This document shows positions 1,954 through 39,890 of a DNA stretch of 64,000 nt, one piece after another (positions within the stretch are counted from its first letter, which is position 1; each line of letters starts with the position of its first letter). Source of the DNA: DASRDR01 sp963812945 [NCBI: uncultured Candidatus Rokubacteria bacterium] (GTDB lineage: Bacteria > Methylomirabilota > Methylomirabilia > Rokubacteriales); contig CAWEXD010000008.1 in the NCBI GenBank assembly GCA_963812945.1, positions 3,472,001 through 3,536,000 on the forward strand, in the 5' to 3' direction. The translations under genes and the position numbers were made by a program. The notes below the pieces were generated by a model, which saw only the letters and a program-made list of their open reading frames with translations, ran no database searches and was not told the DNA's origin.

Positions 1954-3285
1954 CTACGGGCCGAACAGCCAGCGGGGGAACCAGAGCGCGATGTCGGGGA
2001 AGATGATGCAGAGGGCGAGGCCGACGAGCTGGAGCACCATGAACTGCCCCATGCCCCGGTAGATGTCGCCGAGGGACCAGTGGGGGGCCACGCCCCGGAG
2101 GTAGTACGCCGACATCGCGACGGGCGGGGAGAGGTAGGCGGTCTGCAGGTTCACCGCGATCAGGGTGGCGAACCACAGCATGTCGATCTTCATCGCCGCG
2201 ATGATCGGCTGCATCAGCGGCACGAAGACCAGGATGATCGCCGGCCACTCGAACGGCCAGCCGAGGAGGAAGATGACCACCATGAGCACGGCCAGCATCG
2301 CCATCGGCGGGATCTGCCAAGCGAGCATGGCGTCGGTGGCCACCCGGGCCGTCCCCAGCCGCGAGAACACCGCGCCGAAGACGTTGCCGGCGACGGCGAG
2401 AAAGATGACGGTGCTGGCCTGGAGCAGGGTGTTGTAGACCGCGTCCTTGAGCCGTTGCCACGTGAACTGTCGGTAGACCACGGCGAGGAAGGCGGCGCCG
2501 ACGACGCCCATGGCCGCCGCCTCGGTGGGCGTGGCCCACCCCAGGATGATGGTGCCGAGGGTGGCGAGAATGAGGATGGCGTGCGGCACCATTCCCAGGG
2601 TCAGCTCGATGGCGATCTCCTTGAGGGTCCCGGTCCGTTCCTCGGGCGGGAGCGGCGGCCCCAGGCTCGGATTGATCAGGCAGCGGATCAGGCAGTAGAC
2701 GATGAAGATGCCGGCCAGGAGGAACCCGGGACCGAAGGACGACGCGTAGAGCTGGACGACGGACACCCCCAGGACCGGCCCCATCACGACCAGCATGACA
2801 CTCGGGGGGACGAGGATACCCAGCGTGCCGCCCGCGGTGATGGCGCCGGCGGACATCTTGACGTCGTAGCCGGCCTTCGTCATGACGGGAGCGGCCATGA
2901 TGCCCATGAGCACGACCGTCGCGCCCACGGTGCCGGCGGCGATGCCGAAGATGGTCGCGGTGACGAGGACGCCGACGTAGAGCGAGCCGGGCACCGGCCC
3001 CATGAGGAGCTGGAACCCCTTGAACAGGCGCGCCATGAGACCGCCCTGTTCCATCAGGTAGCCCATGAAGATGAACAGCGGGACGGCGGCGAGGACCTCC
3101 TCCTTCATGAGCCCGATGGTCTGGAACACCATGATGTAGAAGGCCCCGTCCCCGAGCCCGAGCCAGCCGAAGATCAGCGCGAGCAGCAGCAGCGTGAACG
3201 AGATCGGGAAGCCGATGAAGATGGCGCCGAGCATGACCACCAGCATCACGGCGCCGAGCAGCTCGGGGCTCACCGGGCCCTCCAT
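1954..3285 (-). CDS. dctM: TRAP transporter large permease, DctM (copy 1)
   Basis: Membrane subunit of 443 aa that carries the Na+-coupled transport path. About a dozen hydrophobic segments are visible, with FIGFPISFTLLLLALIFG near the N-terminus, FIFMGYLMEQGGLMARLF, and the family stretch SAGAITAGGTLGILVPPSVM. Length matches DctM. Its gene lies 33 nt downstream of the dctQ of the same set, so the transcription order dctP(5181)-dctQ(3903)-dctM(3285) is a complete TRAP operon. It ends just short of the bidirectional hairpin at 1902-1933. Confidence 0.93.
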   Translation of the reverse strand: MEGPVSPELLGAVMLVVMLGAIFIGFPISFTLLLLALIFGWLGLGDGAFYIMVFQTIGLMKEEVLAAVPLFIFMGYLMEQGGLMARLFKGFQLLMGPVPGSLYVGVLVTATIFGIAAGTVGATVVLMGIMAAPVMTKAGYDVKMSAGAITAGGTLGILVPPSVMLVVMGPVLGVSVVQLYASSFGPGFLLAGIFIVYCLIRCLINPSLGPPLPPEERTGTLKEIAIELTLGMVPHAILILATLGTIILGWATPTEAAAMGVVGAAFLAVVYRQFTWQRLKDAVYNTLLQASTVIFLAVAGNVFGAVFSRLGTARVATDAMLAWQIPPMAMLAVLMVVIFLLGWPFEWPAIILVFVPLMQPIIAAMKIDMLWFATLIAVNLQTAYLSPPVAMSAYYLRGVAPHWSLGDIYRGMGQFMVLQLVGLALCIIFPDIALWFPRWLFGP

Positions 3286-3318
3286 GATCCGCGGGAGTTC
3301 ATGTGGCGGCCTGCGGGC

Positions 3319-3903
3319 TCACCCGATCTCCAGCTGCTCGCGATGGGTCCACTCGCGGCCGGTGCGCACGGCGTAGAGGCTCTTGAGGAACTCCCCGATC
3401 CCCTGGACGAGCAAGAGCACTGCGGTGAGCGGGATGACGGCCTTGAAGGGATAGACGATCGGCCGCCAGGGGCTCGCGTCCGAGGACTCCCGGATCTCGA
3501 ACGAGTGATAGGCCTCCTGCCAGCCGAAATAGAAGAGCACGACCATCGCCGGGAAGAAGAAAAAGAGGTACCCGACCGCGTCGATTTGGTTCTGGCGACG
3601 AACGGACCAGTTCTGGTAGAGCATGTCGGTCCGCACGTGGCCCACGCGCATGAGGGTGTAGGCGGTCCCCAGCATGAAGTGCGTGCCGTACAGCATGTAG
3701 GTCACGTCGAAGGCCCAGATGGTGGGGGCGCGGAAGAAATGGCGGGCCACCACCTCCCAGGTGACGGCGAGCGTCATGGGGACTATCAGCCAGGCCACCA
3801 CGCGGCCCGACCAGTCGGCGATCCGGTCGATCACCTCGATGGTGGTCCGGAAACCCAGGGGGATGTCGCCGTGGTTCGATGCTCCGGGGGCGGGCGTCGC
3901 CAC
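3319..3903 (-). CDS. dctQ: TRAP transporter small permease, DctQ (copy 1)
   Basis: Small membrane subunit, 194 aa, with four hydrophobic helices (around IADWSGRVVAWLIVPMTLAV, YMLYGTHFMLGTAYTL, YLFFFFPAMVVLFYFG and VIPLTAVLLLVQGIGEFL). WEVVARHFFRAPTIWAFD is the usual DctQ loop. In these transporters DctQ packs against DctM and helps dock the receptor. It sits between dctP copy 2, 150 nt upstream, and dctM copy 1, 33 nt downstream, all on the minus strand. Confidence 0.9.
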   Translation of the reverse strand: MATPAPGASNHGDIPLGFRTTIEVIDRIADWSGRVVAWLIVPMTLAVTWEVVARHFFRAPTIWAFDVTYMLYGTHFMLGTAYTLMRVGHVRTDMLYQNWSVRRQNQIDAVGYLFFFFPAMVVLFYFGWQEAYHSFEIRESSDASPWRPIVYPFKAVIPLTAVLLLVQGIGEFLKSLYAVRTGREWTHREQLEIG

Positions 3904-10350: not shown

Positions 10351-11217
10351 ATGTCCCTGACCACCCTGGCCCAGGCCATCGGGAGCGGGCTGGCGAACGG
10401 CGCGATCCACGCCCTCCTGGCGCTGCCGTTCGCGATCGTGCTCAGCCTCGCGCGTGCGCTCAACCTGGCCCACGGCGAGATCGTGGTGCTCGGCGGGTAT
10501 GTCGCGTACGCCGCGTGGCGTGCATGGGACCTGCCGCTCCCGGCGCTGGCTCTCCTGGCCGGCGTCGCCCTCGTCCCGCTGGGTCTCCTGTGGCGAGCGC
10601 TCCTGGCGCGCGTTCCGGAGCCGGTCGAGCTGAACAGCCTCACCCTGACGTTCGGGCTGTCGCTCCTGCTCCAGAACGGGGCCCTGGCCGTCTGGTCGGC
10701 GGACTACCGCCTGATCACGACCGAGTCCGGCAGCGGCGGGCAGGCCTGGCTCGGTCTGCCGCCCGCGCGGGCCGGGCTGGCCGCCCTGAGCCTCGTGGTC
10801 TTCCTCGCGCTCCACGTAGGCCTCTCCCGCACCCGATGGGGGGCGGCGCTGCGCGCCACGAGCCGCGATCCGGAGACGGCCTCCCTCATGGGCATCGACA
10901 CGGGCCGCGTCGCCCGCGCCGCCTTCGCCGCCGCGGCGGCGCTGGCCGGGTCGGCCGGCGCCCTGTTCGCGGCCCTGCACTACCTCCATCCCTCCGCGGG
11001 CGTGGATCTCACGCTGCTTGCCATCACGCTCGCCGTCCTGGGAGGCGTGGGCCGCGTCGGCGGCCTCCTGGCTGCCGGCCTGGCCCTGGGGCTCGTGGAA
11101 GGCCTCACGCTGGCCACCGTCGGGCCGGGATGGCGTGAGCTGGCAATCGCGCTGACCCTCCTCGGCGCGCTCCTCGTCCGGTCACGGGGTCTCGGCGCGG
11201 GGCACCTCCCGGCATGA
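10351..11217 (+). CDS. livH: Branched-chain amino acid-type ABC permease, LivH
   Basis: Inner-membrane permease, 288 aa, with eight or so hydrophobic segments. The block LALPFAIVLSLARALNLAHG near the N-terminus is the LivH signature region, and the permease loop SLMGIDTGRVARAAF is present at about 185-200. Its TGA stop overlaps the ATG of livM (ATGA at 11214), a 4-nt overlap expected to couple translation. Very alanine- and leucine-rich, as are its neighbours. Confidence 0.9.
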   Translation: MSLTTLAQAIGSGLANGAIHALLALPFAIVLSLARALNLAHGEIVVLGGYVAYAAWRAWDLPLPALALLAGVALVPLGLLWRALLARVPEPVELNSLTLTFGLSLLLQNGALAVWSADYRLITTESGSGGQAWLGLPPARAGLAALSLVVFLALHVGLSRTRWGAALRATSRDPETASLMGIDTGRVARAAFAAAAALAGSAGALFAALHYLHPSAGVDLTLLAITLAVLGGVGRVGGLLAAGLALGLVEGLTLATVGPGWRELAIALTLLGALLVRSRGLGAGHLPA

Positions 11218-12161: not shown

Positions 12162-12892
12162 CGCCGGCTCGTCTCGAGGTCGACGGCGTGACGCTCCGCT
12201 TCGGGGCGCTCGAGGCGCTCCGTGACGTGAGCCTCGTCGCCGAGCCCGGATCCCTCGTCGCCCTCCTGGGGCCGAACGGCGCGGGCAAGACCACGCTGTT
12301 CGACGTGATCTCGGGCCGGCTGCGTCCCGTCCGCGGCAGCGTCCGCTGGGGCGGCGTCGAGCTGACGCGGCTCCCGCCTCATCGGGTGGCCGCGCTCGGG
12401 GTCGGGCGGACGTTCCAGGTCGCCCGACTCTTTCCGGGGCTCGCAGCGATCGATAACGTGCTGGTCGGCGTGACGTTCGGGGCGGATCCGCCTGGCTCGG
12501 CGGCGGAGCGCCGCCGACGCGGGGGCGAGATCCTGGCGTCGGTCGGCCTGGCCGACAAGGGCGGGGTTCCCGCCTCCCGCCTCTCTCTGGGCGAGCAGAA
12601 GCGGCTCGAGCTCGCGGTCGCGCTCGGAGCCGGACCCAGCCTGCTGCTCCTCGACGAGCTCGGGGGAGGCCTCTCACCCCGGGGCCGCGACGAGATCCAC
12701 CGCCTCTGCGGCGACCTCCGCGCGCAAGGGTGTACCGTGATCGCGATCGAGCACGCGCTGGGACGGCTGGCGCGGCTGGCGGACCAGATCGTCGTGCTCG
12801 AGCAGGGCGCCGTCCTCACTGCGGGCCGGCCGGACACGGTCCTCGCGTCTCGCCGCGTCGCCGAGGCGTACTTCGGCGAGGCGGACGCATGA
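12158..12892 (+). CDS. livG: Branched-chain amino acid-type ABC ATPase, LivG
   Basis: ATP-binding subunit, 244 aa, starting at the GTG that overlaps the livM stop. Walker A GPNGAGKTTLFD, Q-loop FQVARLFPGL, signature LSLGEQKRLELAVALG, Walker B LLLLDELGGGLS and the switch His in VIAIEHALGRL are all present. The catalytic Glu is kept, although the usual Pro after it is replaced (DELGGG). Its stop codon overlaps the first ATG of the intergenic repeat that separates it from livF. Confidence 0.9.
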   Translation: MTPARLEVDGVTLRFGALEALRDVSLVAEPGSLVALLGPNGAGKTTLFDVISGRLRPVRGSVRWGGVELTRLPPHRVAALGVGRTFQVARLFPGLAAIDNVLVGVTFGADPPGSAAERRRRGGEILASVGLADKGGVPASRLSLGEQKRLELAVALGAGPSLLLLDELGGGLSPRGRDEIHRLCGDLRAQGCTVIAIEHALGRLARLADQIVVLEQGAVLTAGRPDTVLASRRVAEAYFGEADA

Positions 12893-12983
12893 GCCCACAG
12901 GCCGAAGGCCGTCCGATCGAGGCCGTCCGATCAACTCCCGCGGAGCCCCACAGGCCGAAGGCCGTCTGCGGGTAGCCCAGTGA
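12889..12983 (+). repeat. Intergenic junction repeat with mini-cistron, copy A (livG/livF)
   Basis: This 95-bp element runs from the ATGA that contains the livG stop to the GTGA that starts livF. It contains the core CCACAGGCCGAAGGCCGT twice (about 12894 and 12946), with a small GGCC-GAA-GGCC hairpin, and two 14-bp tandem units of the form CCGTCCGATC plus four bases. A 28-codon frame is open from 12889 (MSPQAEGRPIEAVRSTP...) to TAG at 12973-12975, four bases before the livF GTG. Copies B and C (13732-13829 and 38827-38910) share the same ends and order. I do not recognise the family. Confidence 0.8.
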
Positions 12984-13735
12984 GCGCCGGAGTGGCGGGT
13001 CCGGCCGTGCTGGAGGTGGATCGCGTGGCCGCCGGCTACGGTGAGACCGAGATCCTCCACGACGTGTCCCTCGCCGTGCGGCCAGGTGAGCTGGTCGCCC
13101 TGCTCGGGTCGAGCGGAGCGGGGAAGACCACGCTGCTCCGCGCGATCACGGGCCTCATTCCGATCCGGGCGGGCCAGGTGCGCTTCGGCGCGGCGCGGCT
13201 CGACGGGCTTCCTCCGCACCGGATCGCGGCGCTCGGCGTCACCGCCATGCCCGAGGGCCGGCGCCTGTTCGACGAGCTGTCGGTCGGCGAGAACCTGGCA
13301 ATCGGCGCCTACCTGCCCGCCGCCCGGGGCCGGGCGCCCGAAGCGCGGGCGCTCGTCGAGCGGCTGTTCCCGGTGCTGACACCCCGGCAGGACGCGCGGG
13401 CGGGGCACCTCTCGGCGGGCGAGCAGCAGATGGTCGCACTCGGCCGGGCGCTCATGGCGAGCCCGCGGTGCCTCGTGCTCGACGACCCCTTCCTGGGGCT
13501 GGCCTCAACGCTCCGAGCCCGTCTTGCGCCGATGCTCCGGGCGCTAGCGGAGGACGGCCAGGGCCTCGCGATCCTCGCAGCGGGTCAGCACGTCCGGACG
13601 CTCCTGGGCGTCGCCCACCGGGGGTACGTCCTGGACGCGGGCCGCGTCCTGGCCAGCGGGCCGGGCCCCGCGCTGCTCGACGATCCGGACGTCCGGCGCA
13701 CGCTCCTCGACCTCGGCCGCGAGACGCCGCAATGA
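12980..13735 (+). CDS. livF: Branched-chain amino acid-type ABC ATPase, LivF, with altered Walker B
   Basis: ATP-binding subunit, 251 aa, GTG start. Walker A is GSSGAGKTTLLR, where most LivF have GxNGAGKTT. The signature is LSAGEQQMVALGRALM. Walker B reads CLVLDDPFLGLA, so the position of the catalytic Glu (residue 169) is Asp. The H-loop region ILAAGQHVR also departs from the ILLVEQN form seen in the second LivF of this window (41454). It may hydrolyse ATP slowly, leaving livG as the main motor. It is flanked on both sides by copies of the junction repeat. Confidence 0.88.
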   Translation: MSAGVAGPAVLEVDRVAAGYGETEILHDVSLAVRPGELVALLGSSGAGKTTLLRAITGLIPIRAGQVRFGAARLDGLPPHRIAALGVTAMPEGRRLFDELSVGENLAIGAYLPAARGRAPEARALVERLFPVLTPRQDARAGHLSAGEQQMVALGRALMASPRCLVLDDPFLGLASTLRARLAPMLRALAEDGQGLAILAAGQHVRTLLGVAHRGYVLDAGRVLASGPGPALLDDPDVRRTLLDLGRETPQ

Positions 13736-13829
13736 GCCACAGGCCGCCACAGGCCGAAGGCCGTTCGATCGAAACCGTCCGATCGAAACCGTCCGATCAA
13801 CTCCTGCGAAGCTTGGGTTAGCCCGGTGA
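13732..13829 (+). repeat. Intergenic junction repeat with mini-cistron, copy B (livF/cytochrome)
   Basis: This 98-bp element spans from the ATGA holding the livF stop to the GTGA that starts the cytochrome gene. It has the duplicated CCACAGGCCG unit, the GGCC-GAA-GGCC hairpin core and three 14-bp tandem units (CCGTTCGATCGAAA and two variants), one more than copies A and C. The mini-frame 13732-13821 begins MSHRPPQAEGRSIETVRSKP and ends TAG, four bases before the GTG at 13826. The extra 14-bp unit shifts its C-terminal reading frame relative to A and C. Confidence 0.8.
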
Positions 13830-37969: not shown

Positions 37970-38830
37970 TCAGTACCGCTGCCCGAGGGCGAGCTGCTCC
38001 GGCAGGCCGATCAGGTCGCAGAACTCCTGGAACGACACCAGACGCTCCGCGTCCCGCGGCGCCGCGTCCCGGTCGCGGAGCTCCGCGAGGTGACGCTGCA
38101 TCGCCCGGGTGGCCGCAAACAGGAGGTCGACCGGCACGATGATGACGGCGTAACCGAGCTCGCGCAGCCGGGCGAAGGGCACGAGCGGCGTGCGCCCGCT
38201 GGGCGCGTAGTTGAAGAGCAGCGGTCGGTCCAGTCGCCGCGGCAAGGCTTCGATCTCCGCCTCGGAGGTCGGCGCCTCGACGAAGAGGACGTCCGCGCCC
38301 GCGCGGGCCGCGGCCGACGCCCGCTCCACAGCGTCGTCGAACCCGGTCACGGCGATGGCGTCGGTGCGCGCGATGATCAAAAGGTCCGGGTCCGTGCGCG
38401 CCTCGACCGCCGCCCGAATCCGGCCGACGAACTCCTCCGCCGGCACGACCTGCTTGCCCGCGAGATGGCCGCAGCGCTTGGGCGCCACCTGATCCTCGAG
38501 GTGGAGGCCCGTCACGCCCGCCAGCTCGTACTGCTGAACGGTGCGCCGCACCTGGAGGGCGTTGCCGTAGCCGGTGTCGGCGTCGGCGAGCAGCGGGATG
38601 GACACCGCGCTCGCCAGGCTCCGCGCCTGGTCGACCATCTCCGCCAGGCCGGCGAACCCGAGGTCGGGCAGCCCGAGCCGCGCCGCCGAGACGCCGAAGC
38701 CGGTCATGTACACGGCGGGGAACCCGGCCTGCTCGACCAGCCGGGCGGACAGCGCGTCGTACGCGCCGGGCACCACGAGGCCCTGCCGGCGCTCGACGAG
38801 CTGCCGGAATGCGCGGCGCCGCACGTTCAC
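37970..38830 (-). CDS. Isocitrate lyase / PEP mutase superfamily enzyme
   Basis: 286 aa, GTG at 38830. The Mg-binding motif SIPLLADADTGYGNALQV, the ED site LHLEDQVAPKRCGHLAGK (KRCGH in place of the isocitrate lyase KKCGH) and LLIIARTDAIAV are intact. This pattern fits methylisocitrate lyase, oxaloacetate decarboxylase or 2,3-dimethylmalate lyase. It lies between a Liv operon and a TRAP operon, and junction repeat C separates it from livM with the mini-cistron stop overlapping this start. 148 nt to dctP copy 3. Confidence 0.88.
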   Translation of the reverse strand: MNVRRRAFRQLVERRQGLVVPGAYDALSARLVEQAGFPAVYMTGFGVSAARLGLPDLGFAGLAEMVDQARSLASAVSIPLLADADTGYGNALQVRRTVQQYELAGVTGLHLEDQVAPKRCGHLAGKQVVPAEEFVGRIRAAVEARTDPDLLIIARTDAIAVTGFDDAVERASAAARAGADVLFVEAPTSEAEIEALPRRLDRPLLFNYAPSGRTPLVPFARLRELGYAVIIVPVDLLFAATRAMQRHLAELRDRDAAPRDAERLVSFQEFCDLIGLPEQLALGQRY

Positions 38831-38910
38831 CAGGGTACCCAGGGCTCTGCGGTAGTTGATCGGACAGGGTTGATGGGACGGCCTTCGGCCTGTGGCGGCC
38901 TGTGGCTCAT
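38827..38910 (-). repeat. Intergenic junction repeat with mini-cistron, copy C (livM/ICL-family gene)
   Basis: Read leftwards, this 84-bp element runs from the ATGA containing the livM stop (38910-38907) to the GTGA that starts the isocitrate-lyase-family gene (38830-38827). It has the duplicated CCACAGGCCG, the AAGGCCGT hairpin core and two 14-bp units. The 27-codon frame begins MSHRPPQAEGRPINPVRSTT and its TGA overlaps the next GTG, so upstream stop/mini-start and mini-stop/downstream start are both 4-nt overlaps. It is about 25 kb from copies A and B and on the opposite strand. Confidence 0.8.
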
Positions 38911-39890
38911 GCGGCGGTCTTCACCGTCCGTGCCGGGCGGGCCAGGGCGCGGGCGAGGCCACCCCAGATGCCGGCCGGCAGGAAGATGATGAAGAGGACC
39001 AGCAGGAGGCCGTAGATCGTCTCCGCCATCCCGATGAACCTGATCCCGAAGGCGATGCGAAGTGACTCGCTCAGCGCGATGGTGAGCGCGGTGCCCACGG
39101 TCGGGCCCAGGAGCACGTACATCCCGCCCAGGACCACCGCGAACACGATGCGGAGGGACACGCCGATGCCGGCGAGCGTCTCGGGGTTCACGTACGTGAT
39201 GTACTGCGCGTAGGCGACGCCGCCGAGGGCGGTGAGCGCGGCGGACAGCACGGTGATCCCGATCTTGAACCGCGTCACGTGGATCCCGACCGAGGCGGCG
39301 GCCGTCTCGTCCTCCCCGATCGCTTCCATGGCGGCGCGCGCCATCGAGCGGTCGAGGCGCCACCACACCCAGAGCCCGAACGCCCAGAGCACGAGCGTCC
39401 CGTAGTAGAAGATCCGCCGGTCGGCGAACTGGACGGCGAGGAGGCTGCTCGTGCCGGCCGTCTTGAGCGTGAGCCCGAGCGAGCCGCCGGTCCAGTCGCG
39501 CTCGGCGATGATCAGGAGCCGGATCACCTCGCCGACCGCCAGCGTCACCAGGGCGAAGTAGTGGCCCACCACCCGGAAGCGGGAGCAGGGATAGGCGACC
39601 ACCGCGGCGAAGAGCCCGGTCCCCACGACCGCGACCACCGCCCCGATCCAGGGCGTCAGGTGGAAGAAGTTCCAGAGGAGCGCCACCGCGTAGGCGCCGA
39701 GCCCGAGGAACGCCCCGTGCCCCAGGGAAACCAGGCCGAAGCGGCCCATGAGCGACCACGCCTGGCCGACGAACGACCAGATGAACATCTGGATCAGGAC
39801 GTGGAGGATGTACTGTCCGGTTCCTCCGGTCAGGAGGAAGGGCGTGACCAGGAGCAGGGCCGCGAGAACGCCGCCGACCGCCCGGTTCAC
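38907..39890 (-). CDS. livM: Branched-chain amino acid-type ABC permease, LivM (system 2)
   Basis: 327 aa, GTG at 39890 overlapping the livH stop. The marker QAWSLMGRFGLVSLGHGAFL, the segment RVVGHYFALVTLAVGEVIRL and the ATPase-contact loop AIGEDETAAASVGIHVTRFK are all LivM features. The C-terminal PARTVKTAA precedes junction repeat C. Transcription order in this system is livK-G-F-H-M, different from K-H-M-G-F in system 1. Confidence 0.92.
   Translation of the reverse strand: MNRAVGGVLAALLLVTPFLLTGGTGQYILHVLIQMFIWSFVGQAWSLMGRFGLVSLGHGAFLGLGAYAVALLWNFFHLTPWIGAVVAVVGTGLFAAVVAYPCSRFRVVGHYFALVTLAVGEVIRLLIIAERDWTGGSLGLTLKTAGTSSLLAVQFADRRIFYYGTLVLWAFGLWVWWRLDRSMARAAMEAIGEDETAAASVGIHVTRFKIGITVLSAALTALGGVAYAQYITYVNPETLAGIGVSLRIVFAVVLGGMYVLLGPTVGTALTIALSESLRIAFGIRFIGMAETIYGLLLVLFIIFLPAGIWGGLARALARPARTVKTAA

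What the first reader, a model, noticed from the sequence alone, without database searches (positions are those of the whole stretch)
12889..13829. A dispersed repeat placed exactly between one gene's stop and the next gene's start
Copies A (12889-12983) and B (13732-13829) flank livF, and copy C lies 25 kb away on the other strand at 38827-38910. All three begin at the ATGA containing the upstream stop and end at the GTGA of the downstream start. All have the same internal order: CCACAGGCCG units, AAGGCCGT hairpin core, 14-bp CCGTCCGATC-type units, AACTxCxGC tail. Elsewhere in the window adjacent genes meet at a single 4-nt NTGA overlap at least twelve times. The element therefore looks as if it inserted into RTGA junctions and duplicated the RTGA(GC/AC) bases, splitting stop from start without disrupting either gene. 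I know of no named family with this behaviour.
Basis: partly seen in the sequence, partly recalled or inferred. Interest (0 to 1): 0.88.

Follow-up and report, generated by a model that had tools for sequence, protein, structure and literature searches.

The report
Mobile repeats wedged between coupled genes
Short repeated DNA pieces in an uncultured bacterium of the Rokubacteria group sit exactly in the 4-letter overlap between neighbouring genes, bringing a new stop and a new start so that neither gene is broken; the same trick is known from the MIRU repeats of tuberculosis bacteria, and is seen here in an unrelated phylum.

Summary
The repeat is real. Copies A (12889-12983 +), B (13732-13829 +) and C (38827-38910 -) run from the ATGA holding the upstream stop to the GTGA holding the downstream start; I add a probable shortened fourth copy D (3270-3322 -, dctQ/dctM). 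The window is Rokubacteria; its genome is not held, and this repeat was not found in 95 Methylomirabilota genomes. But one relative (G002) has 22 sites of a different, 102-nt repeat doing the same thing: of 19 complete copies, 16 have both flanking genes in the predicted frames, and 16 hold a 33-codon ORF whose start overlaps the upstream stop and whose stop overlaps the next start. In relatives without it, two of three junctions tested are mostly plain NTGA overlaps (prfA/prmC 23 of 29; murA/hisG 21 of 29) and the third is not (gatC/gatA 3 of 29). The insertion idea is thus largely right, but 'no named family' is not: mycobacterial MIRUs are described as doing this. Best reading: MIRU-like mobile elements in an unrelated host, keeping translational coupling through a relay ORF. 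Coupling and the moving enzyme are inferred; the peptide shows no selection.

The parts
12889..12983 (+). Copy A, 95 nt, between livG (stop in 12889-12892) and livF (start 12980); two cores; mini-ORF of 28 codons, TAG stop 4 nt before the livF start
   Evidence: Pfam ABC_tran on both sides
13732..13829 (+). Copy B, 98 nt, between livF and a cytochrome c gene (start 13826); mini-ORF of 29 codons, TAG stop 4 nt before the next start
38827..38910 (-). Copy C, 84 nt, between livM (38907-39890) and a PEP-mutase-family gene (37970-38830); mini-ORF of 27 codons whose TGA overlaps the next GTG by 4 nt
3270..3322 (-). Copy D, probable shortened copy of 53 nt between dctQ (3319-3903) and dctM (start taken as the in-frame GTG at 3273 instead of the ATG at 3285); left end and tail kept, core lost; by eye a GTGA - ATGA - GTGA chain of two tiny ORFs
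   Evidence: DctQ, DctM; gap-tolerant score 42.5 against at most 33 after the other non-element gene stops; 0.4% of 3000 random 60-mers score as high, those overlapping true copies included
11214..11217 (+). livH/livM junction of the same operon: simple ATGA overlap here, but the start of livM carries a 102-nt element in relative G002

Best explanation
The repeats are small non-autonomous mobile elements that insert into the NTGA overlap (or a very short gap) between two translationally coupled genes. The inserted piece begins with ATGA, giving the upstream gene its stop and opening a relay mini-ORF, and ends with GTGA, giving the downstream gene its start. Ribosomes that finish the upstream gene restart on the mini-ORF, end at or next to the downstream start and restart there, so coupling survives the insertion. 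This is the MIRU way of life, in a different phylum. Shown: dispersal, exact junction placement, orientation with the genes, open relay ORF, empty overlap sites. Inferred: that the ORF is translated, that coupling is kept, and that an enzyme acting in trans (perhaps a Y1/REP-associated type) moves it.
For: Three window copies and a probable fourth, all between same-strand genes and in gene orientation. In relative G002, 20 left ends and 19 right ends were found by pattern, together 22 sites; 21 have a recognisable left end and 19 are complete. Of the 19, 16 are exactly 102 nt, 16 have the best coding frame on both sides at the predicted junction, and 16 carry a 33-codon ORF (34 in the 105-nt copy L313) ending in the TGA that overlaps the next start. 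Sites are in housekeeping gene neighbourhoods (downstream Pfam hits at 8 sites: Amidase, LptE, HEM4/HemD, PrmC_N, HisG, AA_kinase, DNA_pol3_delta2, tRNA-synt_1b). Empty junctions are NTGA in 23 of 29 (prfA/prmC) and 21 of 29 (murA/hisG; 3 of the 29 had no upstream hit) non-G002 loci read, including G094, the best-scoring other genome in those searches. The same liv operon carries elements at different junctions in the window and in G002.
Against: gatC/gatA shows NTGA in only 3 of 29 non-G002 loci; 19 are put down as short gaps, nearly all 1-7 nt. G002 sites L305, L328 and L316 do not fit on one side, and L308 and L310 lack the right end. The mini-ORF peptide shows no purifying selection: 22 synonymous, 53 nonsynonymous and 2 stop changes in 16 copies against 19, 56.5 and 1.5 expected. 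In GC-rich DNA a 28-33 codon open frame is likely by chance, so the ORF itself is weak evidence. In A and B the mini-ORF stops 4 nt before the start; D's first mini-ORF stops 25 nt before. The G002 search patterns contained the ATGA and GTGA ends (up to 3 mismatches allowed), which favours copies with such ends; of 66 first-look candidates in G002 the BLAST search scored only 9. No counterpart junction was found for copy C. No transposase was searched for. The window's own repeat rests on 3-4 copies.
Confidence: 0.8

Rival explanations
1. Ordinary REP-like extragenic palindromes that happen to survive best between operon genes; the exact fit to stop and start comes from selection removing other insertions, with no relay ORF function.
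For: The G002 element matches 43 of 95 genomes (G002 among them) at E<=0.001, outside G002 nearly always only through its middle hairpin (listed rows); in the 7 such loci I looked at the setting is not the ATGA...GTGA wedge (by eye). G094 has a paired-hairpin family in 13 of 77 spacers, in all gene orientations. Only 9 of 66 G002 candidates were scored, so hairpin-only relatives in ordinary G002 spacers are not excluded.
Against: Both ends, not only the hairpin, are shared among G002 copies and fall on the codons. Of 21 G002 sites with a left end, 16 are complete and fit the flanking frames on both sides; the other 5 are 2 copies without the right end and 3 with one misfitting side; selection alone should also leave complete copies in long spacers. 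The window copies show no special fold (z 0.11, -1.15, 0.46).
Confidence: 0.15
2. The elements are regulatory: attenuators or processing sites tuning downstream genes of operons, kept because they are useful.
For: The G002 copy folded (L303) is strongly structured (-58.4 kcal/mol, z -1.98); the senX3-regX3 region with its MIRUs is reported to drive regX3 expression (PMC4213456, passages).
Against: Unrelated target genes; plain junctions in most relatives read at two of three sites; no structure signal in the window copies; the eight other G002 copies scored are 94-96% identical to the query, which suggests recent spread.
Confidence: 0.12
3. Independent small genes (real short proteins) duplicated into operons.
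For: The relay ORF is intact in 16 of 19 complete G002 copies.
Against: Substitutions fall as expected without selection on amino acids; the peptides of A, B and C diverge through frame shifts.
Confidence: 0.04

Closest known systems
MIRU, mycobacterial interspersed repetitive units (Supply et al. 1997, not read; described in PMC12548453, passages)
   Same: Short dispersed repeats (77-bp and 53-bp forms are named in PMC4213456); inserted at start codons; internal ORF coupled at -4 nt; insertion with little effect on the gene.
   Different: Host phylum (Rokubacteria, not mycobacteria); sequences not compared; strong hairpin in the G002 family; ends ATGAGCCAC...GTGA; in A and B the relay ORF ends 4 nt before the start. 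On the range of MIRUs the two papers differ: 'many mycobacteria' (PMC12548453) against 'only in M. [quoted passage not shown]
REP / BIME elements (recalled)
   Same: Dispersed extragenic repeats with hairpins, probably moved in trans.
   Different: REP sit in many kinds of spacers and orientations; these sit stop-to-start, in one orientation.
Rickettsia palindromic elements (recalled, no call)
   Same: Mobile repeats tolerated at coding sequence because they keep frames open.
   Different: Those insert inside genes; these insert exactly between genes.

Membership tests
MIRU (as a kind of element) | Dispersed in several copies per genome | tested here: met
   3 copies and a probable fourth in 64 kb of the window; 22 sites in G002
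MIRU (as a kind of element) | Lies between genes, overlapping the upstream stop and the downstream start | tested here: met
   16 of 19 complete G002 copies have the predicted frames on both sides, and A, B, C too
MIRU (as a kind of element) | Carries an ORF in gene orientation coupled at -4 nt to the next gene | tested here: met
   16 of 19 in G002 and copy C; not in A and B (ORF ends 4 nt short) nor D (25 nt short). Translation itself not tested
MIRU (as a kind of element) | Empty sites are NTGA coupling overlaps | tested here: met
   23 of 29 and 21 of 29 at two sites, but 3 of 29 at the third; window sites 5 of 13 and 4 of 6 by eye. Met for most sites, not all
MIRU (sequence family) | Sequence relationship to mycobacterial MIRU | not tested
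   No MIRU sequence was fetched or compared
MIRU (sequence family) | Mycobacterial host | tested here: not met
   The 19 best protein relatives are Candidatus Rokubacteria
REP/BIME | Imperfect palindrome as the core of every copy | tested here: inconclusive
   Strong in the one G002 copy folded (z -1.98), no signal in window copies A-C
REP/BIME | Associated Y1 (RAYT) transposase in the genome | not tested
   Not searched; the window genome is not held

The most novel reading that the evidence does not exclude
Rokubacteria host a class of mobile elements whose target is the stop/start overlap itself: at least two families with unlike bodies but alike ends (ATGAGCCAC ... GTGA) are steered to NTGA junctions by a trans-acting enzyme that recognises TGAG-like sites, and each carries its own relay ORF, so that translational coupling is a landing site exploited in more than one phylum, as by mycobacterial MIRUs.
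Probability: 0.35. Interest if true: 0.8.

Novelty: new variant of a known kind. Interest (0 to 1): 0.62.

Why it matters
It would take MIRU-like behaviour out of mycobacteria, show that operon-internal overlaps are a safe harbour that mobile DNA has found more than once, and give material (about 20 closely similar copies in one genome, with empty sites in relatives) to test how such elements move and whether a relay ORF keeps coupling alive.

Tried and rejected
Exact 24-nt pattern in GTDB r220 contigs: 0 hits. 18-nt core in viral contigs: 0. 18-nt core with up to 2 mismatches in 20 Rokubacteria genomes: 36 places in 16 of 20 genomes against 26 for the pattern read backwards, so mostly chance; with up to 1 mismatch in 95 genomes: 11 of 95, one or two places each, one exact. 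Copy B by BLAST in 95 genomes: 76 of 95 had a match at E<=1, best E 0.002 over 20 nt; six contexts were printed and none reads as a full element, though L125 shares the first 16 nt. So the window's own repeat family could not be followed outside the window. The pattern ATGAGCCAC-N60-90-C(A/C)(A/G)GTGAGC matched 3 of 95 genomes: five places in G002, one each in G078 and G092, one control match.

Considered and rejected: Rickettsia-type in-gene elements (flanking genes keep their natural ends); a functional peptide; a clean target-site duplication. Copy C's junction has no counterpart found: in the 16 livM loci fetched (43 of 95 genomes had a match) no PEP-mutase gene was found within the stretch held, and one of them, L174, ends just after livM. 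A repeat search among spacers in samples of G094, G092 and G085 (183, 339 and about 306 kb) found other intergenic repeats but no second stop-to-start family.

Full report
What is there. The window has 71% G+C, and its PEP-mutase-like protein finds Candidatus Rokubacteria as closest relatives (the top 19 of the 80 loci kept, 64-69% identity). No whole genome is held for it. Copy A has two cores because a 23-nt piece sits before its tail. A gap-tolerant comparison finds a further, probable shortened copy D at 3322-3270 on the minus strand, between dctQ and dctM. All four lie between same-strand genes and point with them.

Gene fit. A six-frame codon score of the 180 nt on each side gives the frame that ends in the ATGA and the frame that begins at the GTGA as best at A, B and C; B's downstream score is weak. 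Relatives support the livG end and the livF start: there livG ends and livF begins at corresponding residues (by eye). In the window 12 of 47 same-strand pairs can meet in an NTGA overlap.

Empty sites for the window copies. In 13 relatives with livG-livF, 5 show a single NTGA at livG/livF (L142, L144, L145, L146, L149), 7 show another short overlap or gap, and one (L140) has a gene between; where cytochrome c follows livF directly (L140, L141, L143, L147, L148, L152), 4 of 6 show NTGA (L140, L141, L148, L152) (read by eye). These relatives are only 51-63% identical in LivF. For copy C no counterpart was found: in 16 livM loci no PEP-mutase gene turned up in the stretch held, one of which ends just after livM.

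The same thing in a relative. In G002 (the genome of L002, a Rokubacteria groundwater MAG) a search for repeated spacers turned up a 102-nt repeat that starts ATGAGCCACCCG and ends CCAGTGA. Left-end and right-end scans of G002 gave 20 and 19 places, 22 sites together. These patterns include the ATGA and GTGA ends, with up to 3 mismatches, so sites with other ends would be somewhat disfavoured. One site (C58) had no recognisable left end and was dropped; two more (L308, L310) lack the right end; 19 are complete. Of the 19: 16 are exactly 102 nt, two 103, one 105; 17 have the upstream frame and 18 the downstream frame as predicted, 16 both. The mini-ORF runs from the ATG (GTG in L319) of the left NTGA to the TGA that overlaps the next start in 16; in L312 it stops one codon earlier, in L309 it runs in frame into the downstream gene, in L316 it runs past the GTG. 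The base before the left NTGA is G in 21 of 21, the left N is A in 20 of 21, the right N is G in 18 of 19. Exceptions: at L305 the upstream stop codon begins 16 nt before the element; L328 (upstream) and L316 (downstream) do not fit on one side; L308 keeps only about the first 35 nt; L310 lacks about the last 8 nt; at L303 the upstream gene stops in the overlapping TGATGA.

Where they sit. Downstream Pfam hits for 8 G002 sites: Amidase (gatA), LptE, HEM4 (HemD), PrmC_N, HisG, AA_kinase, DNA polymerase III delta subunit, tRNA synthetase class I W/Y. Upstream names such as gatC, leuS, hemC, prfA, murA, obgE, tmk, kdsB are my reading of the protein sequences, not tested. One copy lies at the start of livM of the very operon whose window counterpart carries A and B (from the coordinates); there the window has a plain ATGA.

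Empty sites for G002 copies. For each of three sites the 30 best loci were fetched and read, one being G002 itself (gatA, hisG and prmC had a match in 85, 91 and 77 of 95 genomes). prfA/prmC: 23 of the other 29 have an in-frame start at -4 in an NTGA, 1 a -1 overlap, 3 a gap under 25 nt, 2 longer. murA/hisG: 21 of 29 NTGA, 3 short gap, 2 longer, 3 without an upstream hit. gatC/gatA: 3 of 29 NTGA, 19 short gap (nearly all 1-7 nt), 6 longer, 1 without an upstream hit; some 'longer' rows and L344 come from a trimmed protein match. Where several starts are possible the -4 start was counted; which start is used is not proven. G094, the best-scoring other genome in all three searches, has single NTGA overlaps at prfA/prmC and murA/hisG; at gatC/gatA it is either a GTGA overlap or a gap of a few nt, by eye. 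So most, not all, targets look like coupling overlaps.

How it works. The simplest account: the element carries a stop-and-start at its left end and a start at its right end, so an insertion into an overlap leaves both proteins whole and puts a translated bridge between them. A length divisible by 3 makes the mini-ORF end in the TGA that overlaps the next start (most G002 copies, copy C); one base more puts the mini-ORF in frame with the GTG, as in L309; two more would need an inner stop, which A and B have as TAG 4 nt before the start. The peptide is free to drift: in 16 copies 22 synonymous, 53 nonsynonymous and 2 stop changes, against 19, 56.5 and 1.5 expected (cells counted, not events). 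That no complete copy found by the end patterns lies in an ordinary spacer, apart from the 3 misfits, argues for targeted insertion over selection alone; but hairpin-only relatives in G002 were not surveyed (9 of 66 candidates scored), and no enzyme was searched for. The fold of the one G002 copy tested is strong (z -1.98), that of window copies is not.

What is known. [quoted passage not shown] 1997 (PMC12548453, passages seen). PMC4213456 (passages) says that MIRUs exist only in M. leprae and the tuberculosis complex, whereas the review says many mycobacteria; it gives 77-bp and 53-bp forms. Supply et al. was not held; its proposal of insertion into DTGA sites is recalled. My searches listed no paper on such elements outside mycobacteria or on repeats of Rokubacteria; apart from the two papers named, only titles and abstract openings were seen, several lists were capped (15 of 208, 10 of 2,290, 10 of 15, 6 of 1,780), and most subscription journals are not held. 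So novelty outside mycobacteria is likely, not proven.

Verdict. It works like a MIRU; I do not file it as a MIRU, because the host differs and sequence kinship was not tested. The bodies of the G002 family and of the window family look unlike each other apart from the ends (by eye; copy B finds no match in G002 at E<=1), so they may be two inventions or one fast-changing family.

Noticed in passing
L186, L188, L190, L191, L193, L198 (G094): A paired-hairpin intergenic repeat (GGAGGGGGGCTGCGCCCCCCTCCG-type hairpin followed by GTTGCGCGGGCAAAGCCCGCGCTCGGAG-type) in 13 of 77 spacers, in all gene orientations.
   Followed up: partly
L227, L229, L233, L243 (G092): An intergenic repeat that in these spacers begins at or directly after the stop codon (TGCCGGGCCAAC...), another repeat tied to gene ends.
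   Followed up: no
L140, between livG and livF: G094 has an extra gene (YceI-like by eye, not tested) exactly between livG and livF, with a GTGA overlap to livF: the junction that holds copy A in the window.
   Followed up: no
L145, after livF: G076 has a hairpin repeat just after the livF stop, in the junction that corresponds to copy B on the livF side.
   Followed up: no
L267, L268, L269, L270, L271, L272, L276: The hairpin inside the G002 element resembles hairpins across the phylum (E<=0.001 in 43 of 95 genomes, G002 included); in these 7 loci it lies outside any stop-to-start wedge (by eye). The element may have captured a common hairpin.
   Followed up: partly
L147, after livF: By eye, the livF/cytochrome c gap of G090 holds a tiny ORF of six codons linked by ATGA overlaps on both sides: a relay without any repeat.
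   Followed up: no
L305 and L308: G002 sites with shifted or decayed surroundings: at L305 the upstream stop codon begins 16 nt before the element, L308 keeps only about the first 35 nt of it.
   Followed up: partly
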